Below the pieces are notes generated by a model. The model was given only the letters and a program-made list of their open reading frames with translations. It did not search any database and was not told the DNA's origin. Both the position numbers and the translations under genes were made by a program. Positions 1 through 19,688 of a stretch of 37,728 nucleotides of DNA are shown piece by piece. This stretch comes from Flavobacteriaceae bacterium (GTDB lineage: Bacteria > Bacteroidota > Bacteroidia > Flavobacteriales > Flavobacteriaceae). The stretch spans positions 1 to 37,728 of the forward strand of contig JASJDL010000004.1 in assembly GCA_030065775.1 (NCBI GenBank), written 5' to 3'. Numbering within the stretch: position 1 is the stretch's first letter; the number at the start of each line of letters is the position of its first letter.

Positions 1-587
1 CTTTGAAATGATGCACGTGGTTGAAAATAATCTTGCTTCAAGTCTAACCACCCTAAACGCCTGAAGTTCTTCAATGCTGTATACACCACATTATCGATTC
101 TTTCATCGTCATCATCGATTTTTAAATCTCCTGATGATTGTGCTATGAGTTTAACAAGGCCATCTTTATACTCCTCATAATCATTTCGAATCATTTCTTG
201 AAGCTTCGATACCGAATCAAGTTCGATATTACCCTCATAATAAATAATCTTATACATAATAAGGCCTATGATTATGTATTCGTTTTTTAATACATCCCTG
301 TATGGCGAAGGAATATTACCTCTGGATGCAGTATTAAAATCTAAAAAGAAGTAGGAATCTGATTGAAGGTTTTCTTCTTTCAAATGAATTCCATAATAAT
401 AATCGTAGTAGGAATCGAGATCTTCTTTATGCCGTTTAAGAAATCTGTAATAAGGAATTTGGTCTCCATATTCTTGTATGTGTACACCGTCCTTTAAATA
501 ATAATCAAGTTCGCCAAAATACGTCTCGGCATCTTTGTCAAAGTAGAACTTTAAAAAGCTCAATGCTCCTGTAATACTGTGCTCCAT
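1..587 (-). CDS. MukE/MksE (JetB)-like condensin accessory protein, partial (continues beyond the window's left edge)
   Basis: Manual minus-strand translation from ATG at 587-585: MEHSITGALSFLKFYFDKDAETYFGELDYYLKDGVHIQEYGDQIPYYRFLKRHKEDLDSYYDYYYGIHLKEENLQSDSYFFLDF...NVVYTALKNFRRLGWLDLKQDYFQPRASFQ; open to the window edge. Overlaps the upstream gene by 28 nt. Winged-helix-like segment (ALKNFRRLGWLDLK) and position after a putative kleisin suggest MukE/MksE. Confidence 0.55.
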   Translation of the reverse strand, partial: MEHSITGALSFLKFYFDKDAETYFGELDYYLKDGVHIQEYGDQIPYYRFLKRHKEDLDSYYDYYYGIHLKEENLQSDSYFFLDFNTASRGNIPSPYRDVLKNEYIIIGLIMYKIIYYEGNIELDSVSKLQEMIRNDYEEYKDGLVKLIAQSSGDLKIDDDDERIDNVVYTALKNFRRLGWLDLKQDYFQPRASFQ

Positions 588-1900
588 AGTATCAATCCTT
601 CTTTTCTTATCAGGTTACTTTTATTAATTTTTATTGTACAATCATCCCTTTCATGACCCATATCAATAACTTCAAAATATACTTTAGTGGCAATTGTAAA
701 ATCGGATGTATCTCTAAGCACTCTGTAAAAGAGCTCGGAGATGTTTATTTCTTTATTCTTTCTTAACTCAGCGAATATTAGATTGACCCAATTATCAATT
801 GTTTCTGAATCGTTAAAAGCTTTATCTAAAATGGCCTTGCTTTCCTTTTCAGCTTTTATGTCTCTGGTATATTTTTTTCTTTGTTTTGAGCGTATCGGAA
901 ATAATTCCTTATCCCTATCAAAGTGTATGTATTTTGGTCTTTTAAATCGGGTAGTGACTTCACGTACTTCTTTAGGAAATATGACTCGTTTTTCCCCGGT
1001 TCCTTCTTGTCTAATTAGTTCGGAATATTTAAGTAAAAACCGTATGAACCTATCGGTTTGGGCGCTGTATTCAGGGTTGCGAAATGCGGCAAAAAGCTGC
1101 TTGATTTTTGGCTGAATTCTGTTCAGCCTTCTATCAGTACCTCTCAACCTGCTTTGTATGCTGTCAAAGAAATAGACCTTAGAATCGATAAGACCCAATA
1201 TTGCACTATTCTCAGAATCTATTTGGGTTAGTATAAGGTTAATCGAGTTGGTTTCGGTAAAAGCGCTTCTTAGTTCTTTGTTCTTATTTTGTATTTCGGT
1301 TAAATCATCATTAACTGTTCGCAATAGCTCAAGAGGTTCTAAATGCTGAGCCAGTGTATCTTTTCTAAGTTTGCTTACGGATTCGTCAATCTGCCTGTCC
1401 AAAAAGTCTATATGTTGCTTTAATGTTGGATGATAATGTTCAAAATGAACCTCTAACCATTCACGGATGAGATCTTCTGAATAAAGTGCATTATTCAATT
1501 GATTCTTTAATTCCGAACAAATAACTTTTATTTTAGTAGGCTTGAAGCTACCTTCTAGCGTAGCCTTGACAATTTTGCAGAGGTTTAAACCATATTCTTG
1601 AAAAGAATATGTTCTGGTCTCTTCATCGTAGTTGAGAAAATACTTTTGCAGCCTCAGTATCCTCTCCTTATTGTATGCCCTTACATAATGAGTTTCTTTT
1701 TCCCTGGTAGTCATTGTCGATTCAAAAAGCCTATGGATTTCTTCACCAGAAAATCTGCCATTTTCATAGACCTTATTAATAACCCCTTCATATAGATGAA
1801 CAATCACCAGCCCCTCACGTTCTTCTGGGAAAAGTTCCCGATAAGTATCTGGTTTTAAAATCTCCTCTTTAAAATTGAATATGCTCTTGTCGTCTTTCAA
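560..1900 (-). CDS. Putative MukF/MksF (JetA)-like kleisin-type protein, 446 aa
   Basis: ORF track; all-helical, charged, N-terminal HTH-like region, coiled-coil-like middle (IDFLDRQIDESVSKLRKDTL...LTEIQNKNKELRSAF). Starts 15 nt after the TrlF-like stop and overlaps the MksE-like start. Confidence 0.5.
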   Translation of the reverse strand: MKDDKSIFNFKEEILKPDTYRELFPEEREGLVIVHLYEGVINKVYENGRFSGEEIHRLFESTMTTREKETHYVRAYNKERILRLQKYFLNYDEETRTYSFQEYGLNLCKIVKATLEGSFKPTKIKVICSELKNQLNNALYSEDLIREWLEVHFEHYHPTLKQHIDFLDRQIDESVSKLRKDTLAQHLEPLELLRTVNDDLTEIQNKNKELRSAFTETNSINLILTQIDSENSAILGLIDSKVYFFDSIQSRLRGTDRRLNRIQPKIKQLFAAFRNPEYSAQTDRFIRFLLKYSELIRQEGTGEKRVIFPKEVREVTTRFKRPKYIHFDRDKELFPIRSKQRKKYTRDIKAEKESKAILDKAFNDSETIDNWVNLIFAELRKNKEINISELFYRVLRDTSDFTIATKVYFEVIDMGHERDDCTIKINKSNLIRKEGLILWSTVLQEH

Positions 1901-1915
1901 TACTTTAAAAACATC

Positions 1916-4759
1916 TTAGAAATTATACTTCTTCTTGCGTTTATCAAAAGCCTCTGGGCCACCTTCTAACACATCACAAATATGCTCTTGTATACCACGC
2001 TTGTATAAAACTTCTTCTATGCTATTGTCCTCATTCATAGTATTTTCTATCGAGCCTGAAACATACTCAAAAGTAAATGCCTTGTTCTTGGTGTCTTCTC
2101 CATTTTGATTAGCCACGACAGCAAGTTCAGCGTCAGCGCCGAGCACTAAATTTGGGTTATGGGTAACTATTAGAATTTGCCTCTTCTTTTTTCGCTTGCG
2201 AAGGAATTTCACAACTTGATTGTAAATTGAACGGTTATCTAAGTCATCTTCAGGTTGGTCCACTAGAATGGGGCATTGACTATCATCTAAATCAATAAGA
2301 AGCCTAAGCAAAACGAACGACTTCTTACCAGGGGACATTTCAGAAATATCGTCATTTTGATAGGTAACTTTAAAGTCGTGCATAAACCAATTTTTAAATA
2401 GGGAGGTAATTGCTTCCCTGTTGCTCACTCCTTCTCGTTTCGGAATCTCATTATTTATAATCTTCCACGCTTCACCTTTTAGGAATTTCTTATGTTTTTC
2501 AGAATTTTCAAAGGCATACTCAGTTAGGTATTCGTAGTCCTTACTTCTGGTGGTTCTTCCATCAAAATTTTTGTTCACGTAAGACTCCTGAAAGTAGTCT
2601 TTTCGAAATTTCGTAACAATATCAAAGGATAAGTCATCATCGAACTCGGAAAGGTTTACTGCATTTTTTGCTTCCAGGTACAGAGTATAGTATTCTGTGT
2701 TGCAACTGGCTAGCAGTTCGATATTTTTTTCTATCTGACTGTATGAGATTCTGATTTCATTTTCCAATTCTTTTATGGTCAATATGGTTTTTTCCTCTCT
2801 TTCTTTTTCCTTAAGGAGATCGTTTAAGGCATTTTGGTCCTTTAATGCCTCCCTTAAGTCCGCAATCCCCTTTTCCTCACTAATTATCTCGTCATTGATT
2901 TTTTTAACTGTGGAATTCAAATCTGATATTTTCCCATTCAAAGAAGTTCTCCAATCCAATTTGTAGGAATCAAATTTCTTTTCTGCAAGTGAAGAAATTT
3001 CACTTCTTAAAGTATCACTTGTTAAGTTCTGAATTATACTTTCATTAGCATTTACTGCAATGCCCTTCAAAGACTCTAACTTGGAGATATCTTTATTAAT
3101 TGAATCAACATTTGCCTGTTTTTCTTTTATTAAGTTTGTCACTCTGTTGAAGCGTTCTAAATCGTCTTTGCTTACTTTGGACTTTTGCTGAAAACTCCGG
3201 ATTTCTTCTTCTAGTTTATCAATTTGTTTTGCTATACCATCTTTATCACCTAATTCCTTCTTAAGTCTGTTCTTCTCAATGTTCAGGTGGATATTTTCGA
3301 AGAGGTTTTTAATTGCCCCTTCAATTTTATCAGCAATGTTTTTCTTGTTCCCTTTCAATGAATCATACCATGATTTAAAATCTTCTTTTTGAAGTAGTAC
3401 ATCTAGAATTATTTCATCGATATCACTGGTAGTCTCGCCTTCATCTACGACACGATTTAGATAAGATTGGGGAATATAAATGATTCTTTTACCTGGGTTG
3501 GTCGAGGAGTTCAGATTACTTGTTTGCCCATCTTTCCATAAAACCTCAAAGCCTTGTACCGGTCTTTTGTCCTCAATTCCTGCCGATTTATTTCTTTTTT
3601 CAAACTCTGTAATATCAGCAGTTTTTGCAGTACTCCTTAATAAAATCGATTTTCCAGTAGACTTTCCACCAATAATAGTTGTTAGATTTTGATTAAACTG
3701 AATATAATCCGTTGTGAAAGAAGGATCAAGAAATCGTACTTTATCAATAACCTCGTAGATTTTTTTCTCATCTGGCTTTCTGTCTGATAGAGTTACTCTT
3801 TCTTCAGGCTCATATACGATTTGTTTTAGACCTTCAAACGTAGGATCAGCTTTTATCCAGCATATTCGATTGCCATTTTTTGTAAAAAGTTCATCGAAGG
3901 TATGTGAGTCACTACCCCAAATACATGGTTTAAGTGACTTAAATTCGTCAACATATTCTTTCTGCGAGGCATTAAACTTACCCAGCCCCCATTGAATAGT
4001 TTTAGCATTCGAAGCAAATAAACAATCTGATTTTTGAATCAAGACCTTGCGAGTTAGATGTCCTTGATTATTCCAATCAACATCACTCAAGTCTTCATCT
4101 GATGGTACTGCGGTAAGATATTTCCCCTTGAATATTGACGGTTGACTCGTTAAGAGCTTCGTGATTTTTTCATCAGAAACCACCGCATTCATCATTCCGG
4201 TATATAATGGGCTTGGATGTTGTCTGAACTGCTCATGCTCTTGTTGAAGTCTCGTTCCTAAAGCAGTAAGATTGTTAATTGTTAGTGATCGGCTCTCCCC
4301 AGCTTCTTGAGGCATGCCAGCATACATTATCCTTAATTGTTGTAAGAAATTCTCTTCGATATCTTCAATAGATATATGGTCAGAAAATATAATATGAAAA
4401 TTGACTCTGTTATCTTGCACTAATTTGTCTAGCCTAAACTCTATATTTGGTAGGATTAGTATTTCCTTTATTATAGCTATTTGTTCCCTACTAAATTGTA
4501 GCTCTTTCAATTTAGCATCATTGGCCAAATATTCAGTTTTTAATTTTTTGTAGCCTTCAATGGTAAAATAATCTGTAATCCCAATTACTGCAATCTCATT
4601 ATCTATAGCCCTTGTGAAAAGCTGTTTGACATATTCGTCCCAATCGGAACCGAAACCATTGTGCAAAACAGACTCAGGAGTATGCACATGTAAATCCCAT
4701 TTTCTCCATTCAGAACCTTTACTGTAAATCTTATTCATAAACGAAAATATTAAGCCCAT
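1916..4759 (-). CDS. TrlF-like protein: N-terminal PHP domain fused to SMC/ABC-type coiled-coil ATPase, 947 aa
   Basis: PHP motifs KWDLHVHTPES, GITDYFT, WGSDSHTFDEL; Walker A GGKSTGKS; long coiled coil; ABC-signature-like SEMSPGKKS; Walker B PILVDQPEDDLDN; H-switch ILIVTHNPNLV. A second Met (MNKIYSKGSEWRKWDLHVHT) may be the true start. Confidence 0.85.
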   Translation of the reverse strand: MGLIFSFMNKIYSKGSEWRKWDLHVHTPESVLHNGFGSDWDEYVKQLFTRAIDNEIAVIGITDYFTIEGYKKLKTEYLANDAKLKELQFSREQIAIIKEILILPNIEFRLDKLVQDNRVNFHIIFSDHISIEDIEENFLQQLRIMYAGMPQEAGESRSLTINNLTALGTRLQQEHEQFRQHPSPLYTGMMNAVVSDEKITKLLTSQPSIFKGKYLTAVPSDEDLSDVDWNNQGHLTRKVLIQKSDCLFASNAKTIQWGLGKFNASQKEYVDEFKSLKPCIWGSDSHTFDELFTKNGNRICWIKADPTFEGLKQIVYEPEERVTLSDRKPDEKKIYEVIDKVRFLDPSFTTDYIQFNQNLTTIIGGKSTGKSILLRSTAKTADITEFEKRNKSAGIEDKRPVQGFEVLWKDGQTSNLNSSTNPGKRIIYIPQSYLNRVVDEGETTSDIDEIILDVLLQKEDFKSWYDSLKGNKKNIADKIEGAIKNLFENIHLNIEKNRLKKELGDKDGIAKQIDKLEEEIRSFQQKSKVSKDDLERFNRVTNLIKEKQANVDSINKDISKLESLKGIAVNANESIIQNLTSDTLRSEISSLAEKKFDSYKLDWRTSLNGKISDLNSTVKKINDEIISEEKGIADLREALKDQNALNDLLKEKEREEKTILTIKELENEIRISYSQIEKNIELLASCNTEYYTLYLEAKNAVNLSEFDDDLSFDIVTKFRKDYFQESYVNKNFDGRTTRSKDYEYLTEYAFENSEKHKKFLKGEAWKIINNEIPKREGVSNREAITSLFKNWFMHDFKVTYQNDDISEMSPGKKSFVLLRLLIDLDDSQCPILVDQPEDDLDNRSIYNQVVKFLRKRKKKRQILIVTHNPNLVLGADAELAVVANQNGEDTKNKAFTFEYVSGSIENTMNEDNSIEEVLYKRGIQEHICDVLEGGPEAFDKRKKKYNF

Positions 4760-4911: not shown

Positions 4912-5568
4912 CTAGCTCCTCTTATCTCCAGCTCGAACATCAAAAGCCACCAAATTAAACAATTGCCGCATCCGACTACGCACACGTACTCCATAAAGGT
5001 CTTCTAGTTCTTGGGCATTGAGATTGGTGGTTGCGTGGGTCTTGATGTTGTGTTTTAAGAAAAGTTCGTATCGGGAGAGCAAAATTTCACCCATCACATT
5101 ACAGTCCTTTCCGTAGTGACGACCCATAGGTTCCACACCCAAATCGTCAAAACAAAAAGATTGTGAATTGCCATAATCATCGATGGTTTTATACCCTAAG
5201 TGGTTAAATGAAAAAGCGATGTTTCTGCACGGGATAACTGAATAAGGCCGCTGATGGGGAACAAGATGCTTCAGCAATTTCATTAAACTGGTTTTTCCAC
5301 AGCCTACTGGTCCGGAGAGTAGTAAACCTTTTTCAGGATCTATGTTGAACTTGGCACAATTCTCGTAATCCCTCACAAAATAGTTGGCGAGTTTCCAAAG
5401 AATTTTTCGGTCTTCCTCATAGATTTTAAAGTGCTTACCAAAGAGCAGCTTCCCCTTTGCATTGAGATAAATAAGAATCTTGTCAAAGTCGTAGGACACA
5501 TTTTTACCGTCAAACTTGCCAAGCGAATATTCCACGGCACCTTCTTGTATTTTAGAGGGGTTCACCAT
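4912..5568 (-). CDS. DnaC/IstB-like AAA+ ATPase of a mobile-element replication module
   Basis: Walker A GLLLSGPVGCGKTSLMK, Walker B-like SFCFDDLGVEP, sensor-like THATTNLNAQEL, arginine-rich RVRSRMRQL. Confidence 0.7.
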   Translation of the reverse strand: MVNPSKIQEGAVEYSLGKFDGKNVSYDFDKILIYLNAKGKLLFGKHFKIYEEDRKILWKLANYFVRDYENCAKFNIDPEKGLLLSGPVGCGKTSLMKLLKHLVPHQRPYSVIPCRNIAFSFNHLGYKTIDDYGNSQSFCFDDLGVEPMGRHYGKDCNVMGEILLSRYELFLKHNIKTHATTNLNAQELEDLYGVRVRSRMRQLFNLVAFDVRAGDKRS

Positions 5569-6207: not shown

Positions 6208-6486
6208 CTAGAATTTATTATGCACCCGGTTGTCTACCATTACCTTTTGAATTTCCTCTGAATCATAAAAGATAATACCACCCACTTTAGTATAAGGCAA
6301 AGTACCATTGATTCTAAGGTTTTGTAAAGTCCCTGGGCTAATTTGAAGAAGTTCCATTACCTCGTTTGATTTGAGGTAGCGTTTAAGTTTTCCCTGAGAC
6401 TGCTTGGTCAAGAGGCTTTTGAATTCATCGAGCAATTCAATCTTGAAATCTCGAAGGTCGTCTGTGGTCACAATATTTGCTGGCAT
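6208..6486 (-). CDS. Small MerR/excisionase-like HTH DNA-binding protein, 92 aa
   Basis: RYLKSNEVMELLQISPGTLQNLRINGTLPYTKVGGIIFYDSEEIQKVM: HTH_17-type fold as in Bacteroides Xis proteins. Confidence 0.75.
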   Translation of the reverse strand: MPANIVTTDDLRDFKIELLDEFKSLLTKQSQGKLKRYLKSNEVMELLQISPGTLQNLRINGTLPYTKVGGIIFYDSEEIQKVMVDNRVHNKF

Positions 6487-6753: not shown

Positions 6754-7584
6754 TTAGTCATCGGCTTCCTTCATACGCTCGATGAGGCTTGATTTTAAGC
6801 GGTCTATAAAGCGGGTGCGTTCGACCAATTTTCTGCTACGTAGCTCTATGAACTTACGGTAATAATTACCCAAATCAACATTAAAAAGTGATTCACATGC
6901 AGAGGCAACTTCCTTAACACCAGATTCGCCACCTTGAATAGCACCTGAGGCTTGAAGGGCATAAACAAGCTCTATTAAATCAATTTTAGTGCCTGTCCAC
7001 CGCAAATGTTGTGCTTTACCATTCACTGCGTTCCCATTGTGGGTGAAAGAATGTAGCTTCTCATTTAAGTACAAAGTGAGTTTCCCATAAGCTTTGAATT
7101 TAGCTAGGGTTAAATCTTTTGGTGTACTAAATTCCGGATCTTCTACATAGTTACTGAAACCTAATATTGGAAGTTCGTCAATTGGCTTTCTGGTAAAGTA
7201 GTTATTATCAAAATGAGTATGACTAAGTTGGGTGTATTGACCAAAATCTATATTACGCAAGAAGAATTGATTGTAAGTTTCAAGCTGTTCTTTGATGAAT
7301 TTCTTTTGCCTATTGGAGGTAGAACTGGGAAAGCAAATTTCTAACTGATAAATCTTTTTATGATAAATTAATTCAACTAACGGCACTTGCTTGATTTCCT
7401 TAAAAAATTGGATTTCATCGGATTCTGATTGAAACCCCTTTTGGATAATTTCTTTTCTAAATTTCGAGAGCAATACCCTGCAAGATTGAATACTTCGACG
7501 TGACCGCTCTATAATTGAGGGAGCTGACCTTTCAATTCGGCTTAATTCTTCGAGTAGATTATCTGCCAATAATTTTAATTTCAT
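6754..7584 (-). CDS. RteC-like regulator of a conjugative/integrative element (start moved to MKLKLLADNLL)
   Basis: ORF track gives 6754..7617; pattern (FFKEIKQVPLVELIYHKKIYQLEICFPSSTSNRQKKFIKEQLETYNQFF...DNNYFTRKP; C-terminal HTH-like LVYALQASGAIQGG) is typical of the RteC family. ATG at 7584 seems the more likely start. Confidence 0.8.
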   Translation of the reverse strand: MKLKLLADNLLEELSRIERSAPSIIERSRRSIQSCRVLLSKFRKEIIQKGFQSESDEIQFFKEIKQVPLVELIYHKKIYQLEICFPSSTSNRQKKFIKEQLETYNQFFLRNIDFGQYTQLSHTHFDNNYFTRKPIDELPILGFSNYVEDPEFSTPKDLTLAKFKAYGKLTLYLNEKLHSFTHNGNAVNGKAQHLRWTGTKIDLIELVYALQASGAIQGGESGVKEVASACESLFNVDLGNYYRKFIELRSRKLVERTRFIDRLKSSLIERMKEADD

Positions 7585-7826
7585 AGTACTCCATAGAATC
7601 AGTATTTCCAACTGCATATGGAGCCAACTTTAGTAGGTCAGTTTGGAGTTTTACGAAAATCAAACCCAGAATACAGTAGGAATTGAGGGCAACCCCTCAT
7701 TATATCCTTGTTTTCCACAATACTTTTTAGGTTAAAGAGTTGATTCTCAAAAATAGAGAAAGAGTGTTTTTTCAAAGCTGTGTGAAGGCGTATATATCTA
7801 CGGAATAACACGTATTTTCATACGTA

Positions 7827-18139: not shown

Positions 18140-19402
18140 TTATCGATTACTTGTTGTTTTCTCAATAATAGAATTGTTCAACTTCTGCCTTAAAATTTCC
18201 ATATCTTCACTTATTTTTTTATCCAGTACTCTGGCATAAATCTGTGTGGTTGCCAGCTTGGTATGCCCCAAAAGTTTCGACACAGTTTCGATGGGCACTC
18301 CGTTGGAAAGTGTGACTGTTGTAGCAAAAGTGTGCCGTGCCATATGAAAAGTCAGATTCTTTTTGATACCCACAGCATCTGCAATTTCCTTTAGGTACAG
18401 GTTGATTTTTTCATTGGTCAATACTGGCAATAACGTACCAGACACCATGGTAACAGCGTGTTCAGCGTATTTTTCTAAGATGGTTTCTGCTTTATCCAGC
18501 AATGGCACTTTCACTGGAGTTTTTGTCTTTTGACGCTTGGTAACTATCCAGCGACTTCTATCCATTCCCAATACAATATTATCTGATGTCAGTTTTATGA
18601 TATCCGCATAGCTAATACCGGTATAGCAGCTAAAGACGAACAAATCACGAACTCTGTCCAATCGCTCTAAAGGAAACGTATAGGTTTCTAAATTGGACAA
18701 CTCATTGACACTTAAAAACTCACGTTGTTTGGATTCATAAGTTGGTTTCCATCTTATGAAAGGGTCTTTTTCTATCCATTCCAGATGATAGGCAAGGGTT
18801 ATAATCTTACGCAGTCTTTGAAGATGTTTCATAACAGTATTGTGACACATTGCCTTTGGGTGGCCAACAGGGTAGTATCCAACGAGAAAGGTTTCAAAGT
18901 CAGAAATAAACTTATAGTCTAGCTGTCTCAAATATATGTCCGTGGTTTTAATTTTCTTTTTTAGGTAACGATTGATGTAGTTCTCTGTCACCTCAAAGTT
19001 TCTAATGGTTCCTGCAGCTAGGGTATTCTCAATCTTCCGATTGTGATACGCGAGAATTTCCTGTAAGGTTTTGGAGTTATCATCTTCACCGTTATACTTG
19101 GCTTTGATAAGTTGTGCTGTAATGAGCTCTCCATTATATTTTAGCTCCTGGTAAATATCATATAACCTGACTCGCACCGATTCAATATGGTTGTTGATTT
19201 CTCTTGCGATAGCAGAATTCCCGAAAGCCTTTTTTGCCTTATTATCCCAGCGTTCAACTTCGATTTTACGTTTTAATCCTAGATTGGTTCTTCGACCATC
19301 TACAGTTACTCTGGCAAATAATTCTGCCTTACCATCAGTGATACGTGATTTGTTAATCCAGAACAGGATTGTGAATGTGTGTGAAGACTTCATAGTTGTC
19401 AT
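18140..19402 (-). CDS. Tyrosine recombinase/integrase (Bacteroidota type, Arm-DNA-binding + SAM-like + catalytic domain)
   Basis: Catalytic motifs FSCYTGISYADIIKL, HMARHTFATTVTLSNGVPIETVSKLLGHTKLATTQIYARV. Confidence 0.95.
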   Translation of the reverse strand: MTTMKSSHTFTILFWINKSRITDGKAELFARVTVDGRRTNLGLKRKIEVERWDNKAKKAFGNSAIAREINNHIESVRVRLYDIYQELKYNGELITAQLIKAKYNGEDDNSKTLQEILAYHNRKIENTLAAGTIRNFEVTENYINRYLKKKIKTTDIYLRQLDYKFISDFETFLVGYYPVGHPKAMCHNTVMKHLQRLRKIITLAYHLEWIEKDPFIRWKPTYESKQREFLSVNELSNLETYTFPLERLDRVRDLFVFSCYTGISYADIIKLTSDNIVLGMDRSRWIVTKRQKTKTPVKVPLLDKAETILEKYAEHAVTMVSGTLLPVLTNEKINLYLKEIADAVGIKKNLTFHMARHTFATTVTLSNGVPIETVSKLLGHTKLATTQIYARVLDKKISEDMEILRQKLNNSIIEKTTSNR

Positions 19403-19588: not shown

Positions 19589-19614
19589 TAGTTTTAGTCG
19601 GAGTTTCCTCCCAG

Positions 19615-19688
19615 TGACCTCGGCAGGATTCAAACCTGCAACCTTCTGAGCCGTAATCAGATGCGCTATTCAGTTGCGCCACGAGGCC
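19615..19688 (-). tRNA. tRNA-Arg (anticodon ACG)
   Basis: Reverse complement GGCCTCGTGGCGCAACTGAATAGCGCATCTGATTACGGCTCAGAAGGTTGCAGGTTTGAATCCTGCCGAGGTCA folds as a cloverleaf; anticodon stem TCTGA/TCAGA, loop TTACGGC; CCA not encoded. Confidence 0.95.

What the first reader, a model, noticed from the sequence alone, without database searches (positions are those of the whole stretch)
1..4759. Operon coupling a TrlF-like PHP-SMC ATPase with MukF/MksF- and MukE/MksE-like proteins: candidate variant condensin/Wadjet-like defence system
Seen: three minus-strand genes, tightly coupled (15-nt gap, then 28-nt overlap). The first has a PHP domain with metal-binding-type motifs (DLHVHT, GITDY, GSDSH) fused to a complete ABC/SMC ATPase. 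The next two look like a kleisin and its wHTH partner. Known: Wadjet (JetABCD) and MksBEFG use a MukF/MukE/MukB-like complex plus a Toprim nuclease (JetD/MksG) against plasmids. Inference: the PHP-ATPase could supply a hydrolase effector or a second SMC engine for a condensin-like complex on a mobile element. Whether a MukB-like SMC and a JetD-like nuclease follow to the left decides between 'Wadjet plus TrlF' and a minimal TrlF-MksF-MksE system; either would be notable. Weakest point: the MksF and MksE assignments are from pattern only.
Basis: partly seen in the sequence, partly recalled or inferred. Interest (0 to 1): 0.85.

Follow-up and report, generated by a model that had tools for sequence, protein, structure and literature searches.

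The report
Anti-phage gene joined to truncated Wadjet
A mobile element in a Flavobacteriaceae-like bacterium carries one operon that joins a probable anti-phage nuclease (TrlF) to a divergent anti-plasmid machine (Wadjet, cut off by the contig end), and relatives show this same kind of Wadjet cassette sitting directly behind many different anti-phage systems, which suggests a portable add-on defence unit.

Summary
The three genes are real and the fold guesses were right: TrlF (PHP nuclease plus ABC/SMC-like ATPase), a MukF/JetA-fold protein, and a MksE/JetB fragment. The contig begins inside jetB. A close relative (L133) has the same order complete: DnaC-TrlF-JetA-JetB-JetC (1070-aa SMC)-JetD (320-aa Toprim). 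So this is "Wadjet plus TrlF", not a minimal TrlF-MksF-MksE system. It lies in the cargo hotspot of a Flavobacteriaceae ICE, probably inserted at tRNA-Arg. TrlF-Jet linkage recurs in three genomes; those TrlFs form one clade but pair with two very different Jet lineages (JetA 29% identical). More broadly, this divergent JetABCD behaves as a portable ~6.1-kb cassette with borders at the jetA start and jetD stop. In 22 of 57 dereplicated loci it lies within 50 nt behind another gene, nearly always part of a known anti-phage system (Gabija, Lamassu, Avs3, Avs4, DRT, TrlF and others), and loci with 85-95% identical JetA+B often have unrelated upstream modules. Best reading: two autonomous defence modules, co-expressed. 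Function is untested; the repeated coupling is the novel part.

The parts
3..587 (-). jetB/mksE-like gene (KITE subunit), 195 codons, cut by the contig end
   Evidence: PF21980 MksE E 1.3e-14; 74% identical to complete JetB (216 aa) in L133
560..1900 (-). jetA/mksF-like gene (kleisin, MukF fold), 446 aa, TTG start
   Evidence: Foldseek: MukF 1.5e-6, Wadjet-II JetA 6.7e-4; 68% identical to JetA of L133
1916..4759 (-). trlF: PHP domain plus ABC/SMC-type ATPase, 947 aa (likely start at codon 8)
   Evidence: NF045780 600.9 bits; catalytic residues conserved
4912..5568 (-). DnaC-like ATPase, left border of the cargo slot in the ICE backbone
   Evidence: 71-73% identical to the DnaC of L010, L047, L133; homology to relatives ends at its stop codon
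5552..6199 (-). Rep-like protein of the ICE backbone
   Evidence: recurs next to DnaC in related loci
6208..6486 (-). HTH_17 excisionase-like protein of the ICE backbone
   Evidence: PF12728; recurs
6754..7617 (-). RteC, CTnDOT-type ICE regulator
   Evidence: PF09357 E 1.7e-66
18140..19402 (-). tyrosine integrase, probable ICE integrase
   Evidence: PF00589, PF13102, PF17293; assignment to this element is inference
19614..19688 (-). tRNA-Arg (acg), probable insertion site of the ICE
   Evidence: ARAGORN; insertion site is inference

Best explanation
The window holds the 5' part of a compound defence operon on a CTnDOT-like ICE of Flavobacteriaceae. Module 1 is TrlF, a single-gene anti-phage protein in which the ATPase half senses a phage-induced change (such as DNA ends or nucleotide loss, as reported for Ppl) and licenses the PHP phosphoesterase to cut nucleic acid. 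Module 2 is a divergent Wadjet: JetA (kleisin) and JetB (KITE) with JetC (SMC motor) extrude DNA and detect small closed circles, and JetD (Toprim) cuts them; jetC and jetD lie just beyond the contig end. The modules are transcribed together but act independently, one against phages and one against plasmids. The Jet part is a portable cassette that elsewhere sits behind other anti-phage systems. Shown: gene identities, folds, order in relatives, recurrence, exchange of the upstream module, ICE backbone. Inferred: presence of jetC/jetD in this genome, co-transcription, the activity of each module, their independence.
For: Complete orthologous operon in L133: DnaC-TrlF-JetA-JetB-JetC-JetD, JetA 68% and JetB 74% identical. 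TrlF, MksE and MukF-fold identities. JetC: MukB_N above cut-off in L010 and MukB structures. JetD: invariant Toprim E and DxD, model closest to topoisomerase VI-A. Independence: the same Jet lineage occurs with Gabija, TrlF, Lamassu, DRT or no module; other TrlF loci lack JetA. ICE context.
Against: jetC and jetD are not seen in this assembly (contig end; 80% complete). JetD matches its Pfam model only below cut-off and PADLOC hardly sees this Jet. No activity data. All known Jet-linked TrlFs form one clade, which also fits a specific TrlF-Jet partnership.
Confidence: 0.75

Rival explanations
1. TrlF and JetABCD form one integrated system: TrlF is an extra effector or sensor that acts on DNA captured by the JetABC motor.
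For: The three Jet-linked TrlFs form one clade and are the only Jet-linked ones found; that clade was joined to two distant Jet lineages; gaps are 2-21 nt.
Against: The same Jet lineage as in L047 works with Gabija in L010 and with no module in L060; other TrlF genes have no Jet; JetD already supplies a nuclease.
Confidence: 0.12
2. Ordinary defence-island stacking: two unrelated cargo genes that happen to be neighbours in an ICE hotspot, with no meaning in the coupling.
For: The hotspot between DnaC and tra carries varied cargo or none; Jet flanks vary on both sides; defence genes cluster in general.
Against: TrlF-Jet recurs in three genomes and with two Jet lineages; tight upstream coupling exceeds downstream, 22/57 against 8/50, p 0.01; coupling also occurs outside this ICE backbone.
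Confidence: 0.25
3. Minimal TrlF-MksF-MksE system without an SMC of its own kind or a Toprim nuclease; TrlF provides the engine and the effector.
For: Only these three genes are visible in the window; no jetC found elsewhere in the assembly.
Against: The contig ends inside jetB; the orthologous L133 locus has jetC and jetD directly after jetB, as do relatives in general.
Confidence: 0.04
4. A housekeeping MksBEF-type condensin for chromosome organisation, not defence.
For: The JetB part matches the Pfam family named MksE, condensin complex protein.
Against: A Toprim gene follows in relatives; the type is rare (2 of 396 phylum genomes at E<=1e-15) and sits in mobile cargo next to defence genes.
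Confidence: 0.04

Closest known systems
Wadjet (JetABCD / MksBEFG), types I-III
   Same: Kleisin, KITE, MukB-like SMC and Toprim subunits in the same gene order (PMC10586767)
   Different: Divergent sequence: PADLOC JetA model not matched, JetC1 and JetD3 weak; placed behind another defence module; this copy is truncated
TrlF family ATPase (NF045780)
   Same: Full-length match with conserved PHP and ATPase residues
   Different: A separate clade found only next to Jet; the PHP half is variable (32% identical between window and L133)
Ppl anti-phage protein
   Same: PHP domain joined to an NTPase; partial profile match in the ATPase part; Ppl is described as a PHP exonuclease gated by NTPs and 3' ends (PMC12904381)
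   Different: 92.8 bits against a cut-off of 1000, so not a member; the mechanism of TrlF is untested
Gabija-JetABCD operons of the same Jet clade (L010, L012, L042, L050)
   Same: Anti-phage module 2-39 nt or a short overlap upstream of jetA; L010, L042 and L050 share the same ICE backbone as the window
   Different: Module is GajAB instead of TrlF
Defence hotspots of ICEs and genomic islands
   Same: Variable defence cargo between conserved backbone genes (DnaC and Amidase_3/tra), as described for other islands (PMC12629846, abstract only)
   Different: Here an anti-plasmid cassette is placed in-operon behind the anti-phage module, also outside this ICE backbone

Membership tests
Wadjet (JetABCD) | Four-gene order jetA-jetB-jetC-jetD | tested here: inconclusive
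   Met in L133 and relatives; in the window only jetA and part of jetB exist before the contig end
Wadjet (JetABCD) | JetA with MukF-like kleisin fold | tested here: met
   Foldseek MukF 1.5e-6, Wadjet-II JetA 6.7e-4; whole-chain TM-scores are low, 0.41 and 0.31
Wadjet (JetABCD) | JetB of MukE/MksE type | tested here: met
   PF21980 E 1.3e-14
Wadjet (JetABCD) | JetC MukB-like SMC | tested here: met
   In relatives: PF04310 25.8 bits against 23 in L010; PDB MukB 9.5e-8. Not visible in the window
Wadjet (JetABCD) | JetD Toprim nuclease | tested here: met
   In relatives: invariant E and DxD, model nearest topoisomerase VI-A 1.3e-3; JetD_C below cut-off, 17-18 against 22 bits. Not visible in the window
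Wadjet (JetABCD) | Restriction of plasmid transformation | not testable with these tools
   needs an experiment
TrlF family | Match over the curated NF045780 cut-off | tested here: met
   600.9 bits against 350
Ppl | Match over the curated NF042955 cut-off | tested here: not met
   92.8 bits against 1000
MksBEF (three-gene condensin) | No Toprim nuclease gene | tested here: not met
   Toprim gene follows in L133 and relatives; not visible in the window itself
ABC-3C / Lamassu | ABC-3C middle component, or LmuB-type SMC | tested here: not met
   446-aa protein: no Pfam family; TrlF against LmuB only 15.7 bits

The most novel reading that the evidence does not exclude
A divergent Wadjet of Bacteroidota, largely missed by PADLOC models, is a portable ~6.1-kb anti-plasmid cassette that selection repeatedly places in-operon directly behind unrelated anti-phage systems (at least eight kinds), making compound phage-plus-plasmid defence operons; TrlF-Jet is one of them, and the coupling itself (shared expression or shared trigger) has a function.
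Probability: 0.4. Interest if true: 0.78.

Novelty: new variant of a known kind. Interest (0 to 1): 0.62.

Why it matters
It shows a Wadjet lineage that current models largely miss, and a repeated, positionally precise joining of an anti-plasmid machine to many anti-phage systems. That makes a testable case for compound defence operons: do the halves act alone, or does one gate the other? It also raises a sharp question: an ICE must circularise to move, yet this one carries a relative of a machine that cuts circular DNA. The gene before jetA may also be a practical guide to new anti-phage modules, since in most coupled cases it belongs to a known defence system.

Tried and rejected
Sequence searches for the 446-aa protein in Pfam, NCBIfam, PADLOC and PDB gave only coiled-coil noise, so a fold model was used. 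No plasmid record encodes a relative of JetA. 'Minimal TrlF-MksF-MksE' was rejected because of L133. A shared recombination sequence at the cassette border was looked for by eye in the 70 nt before jetA: none seen. A Bacteroidetes-type promoter (TTTG-N17-23-TAnnTTTG) in the DnaC-trlF gap: no match. A second copy of the tRNA-Arg 3' end as the other att site: not found in the incomplete assembly. The claim that only the upstream side is exchanged was dropped: downstream flanks differ about as often, so the Jet unit is mobile on both sides; what is asymmetric is tight same-strand coupling (22/57 upstream, 8/50 downstream, Fisher p 0.01; the loci are dereplicated at 90% but still related, so p is approximate, and I chose the 50-nt limit). 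An earlier count with neighbours of 80 aa or more gave 23/57 against 11/51, p 0.04. Canonical Wadjets of the phylum as a control: by my reading about 1 of 15 has a gene within 50 nt upstream, but most come from one genus, so this control is weak. Literature searches (open-access PMC only) for TrlF, Wadjet with PHP, a type IV Wadjet, and Wadjet operons with other systems found no description of this coupling.

Full report
Observation. The three minus-strand genes exist at the stated places with a 15-nt gap and a 28-nt overlap. The window is the whole of contig C156, so position 1 is a contig end and jetB is truncated. TrlF is a full-length NF045780 match with conserved PHP and ATPase residues. 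The 195-aa piece is MksE (PF21980). The 446-aa protein has no sequence-level hit, but its model (pLDDT 84.5, 40-sequence alignment from fetched loci) matches MukF at E 1.5e-6 and Wadjet-II JetA at 6.7e-4.

What lies beyond the contig end. A search with the 446-aa protein in 298 genomes of the order found five relatives besides the window itself. In all five, jetA-jetB is followed by a ~1050-1100-aa SMC and a ~300-325-aa protein. The SMC is MukB-like. The last protein keeps the Toprim E and DxD residues, hits JetD_C below its cut-off, and its model is closest to topoisomerase VI-A, a resemblance published for JetD (PMC10586767). A scan of genome contigs with the SMC alignment gave 80 loci, nearly all with the same gene order where flanks and genes are intact; a few are broken or lack a detected JetD. 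The decisive relative is L133 (G773): RteC-HTH17-Rep-DnaC-TrlF-JetA-JetB-JetC-JetD, with JetA 68%, JetB 74% and the TrlF ATPase half 67% identical to the window. The window is thus most likely the left-truncated form of a TrlF-Wadjet operon. jetC was not found elsewhere in the ~80% complete assembly.

How specific is the TrlF linkage? Among 30 TrlF loci from a phylum sample, only the window's own has a JetA neighbour within about 1.5 kb. Of seven other TrlFs found in the family at E<=1e-60, the two at 67% identity (G815, which is L047, and L133) are Jet-linked; the five at 34-36% are not. The three Jet-linked TrlFs form one clade (100*). Yet the Jet of L047 belongs to a different lineage: JetA 29% and JetB 38% identical to the window, and JetA 84% identical to that of L010, which carries Gabija instead of TrlF. 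The same TrlF clade has therefore been joined to two distant Jet lineages.

The wider pattern. Genes directly upstream of jetA in other loci belong to anti-phage systems by PADLOC and Pfam: Gabija (BLAST cluster), Lamassu, PDC-M62, DRT UG5 and UG6 with nitrilase, PDC-S21, HerA-type, Avs4, Avs3, DRT UG10, TmtA with caspase, and Drt3 and type I R-M at larger gaps. In 57 dereplicated loci, 22 have a same-strand gene of 150 aa or more within 50 nt upstream of jetA, against 8 of 50 downstream of jetD (Fisher p 0.01). Two of the 22 (L015, L037) are an unrecognised 341-aa protein that follows HerA-type genes. DNA comparison shows homology beginning at the jetA start codon and ending close to the jetD stop even at 90-93% identity, while the module before it is unrelated; in several groups homology resumes at the stop codon of the preceding backbone gene, DnaC or a 1083-aa helicase. 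Among pairs with 85-95% identical JetA+B, 33 of 53 have unrelated upstream 2.5 kb; at 75-85%, 42 of 45. Downstream flanks vary about as much, so the Jet unit itself is portable. L060 shows the same element and Jet with no module. On a quick JetA+JetB tree the module type changes at least 17 times among the labelled loci. These pairs are not independent, and defence islands are dense in defence genes, so the pattern supports but does not prove selection for coupling.

Element. The RteC-HTH17-Rep-DnaC backbone of the window recurs in L010, L037, L047, L050, L054, L060, and without RteC in the fetched stretch of L042, and in L133. In L133 and L047 the other side of the cargo is a tra operon with TraG. 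This DnaC is in 55 of 201 sampled family genomes, and the stretch between DnaC and Amidase_3/tra carries varied cargo or none. In the window a tyrosine integrase sits beside tRNA-Arg, the probable element end (inference). The operon is cargo of a common Flavobacteriaceae ICE family.

Mechanism. Shown: gene identities, folds, order, recurrence, exchange. Inferred: TrlF works like Ppl, described as a PHP exonuclease released by nucleotide depletion and 3' ends (PMC12904381); TrlF is not a Ppl member by the curated cut-off. JetABCD works like Wadjet, extruding DNA and cutting small circles. The two act independently, because Jet occurs with many partners or none and the other TrlF genes sampled lack Jet. 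Co-transcription is inferred from gaps of 2-21 nt and was not measured.

Novelty. Each part belongs to a known kind. This Jet lineage is largely missed by PADLOC models, and no paper found in open-access PMC describes TrlF-Wadjet operons or the repeated placement of Wadjet behind anti-phage systems. Subscription literature and preprints were not searchable, so novelty is provisional.

Noticed in passing
L133:11409-14066 against window 1916-4759: TrlF halves have different histories: ATPase half 67% identical, PHP half 32%, so the PHP domain looks swapped.
   Followed up: partly
L178-L197: DnaC to Amidase_3/tra interval is a cargo hotspot in Flavobacteriaceae ICEs; L178 looks CBASS-like by eye, L190 is empty with 96 nt.
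   Followed up: partly
L176 (G379:C5): A TrlF (1019 aa) lies about 5.7 kb downstream of a canonical-type JetABCD, with other genes between.
   Followed up: no
L174:4859-9763: Genes resembling type III R-M (by eye) end 41 nt before a canonical jetA, perhaps the same coupling in another Wadjet type.
   Followed up: no
L177 (G462:C33): Three jetD-like genes on one contig, some next to shortened upstream genes.
   Followed up: no
L047:2850-4994: A KAP-family NTPase gene (PF07693) on the opposite strand lies between DnaC and TrlF.
   Followed up: no
window:7827-17871: About 10 kb of metabolic and regulatory genes (AraC, glyoxalase, cupin and others by eye) between RteC and the integrase may be further ICE cargo.
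   Followed up: no
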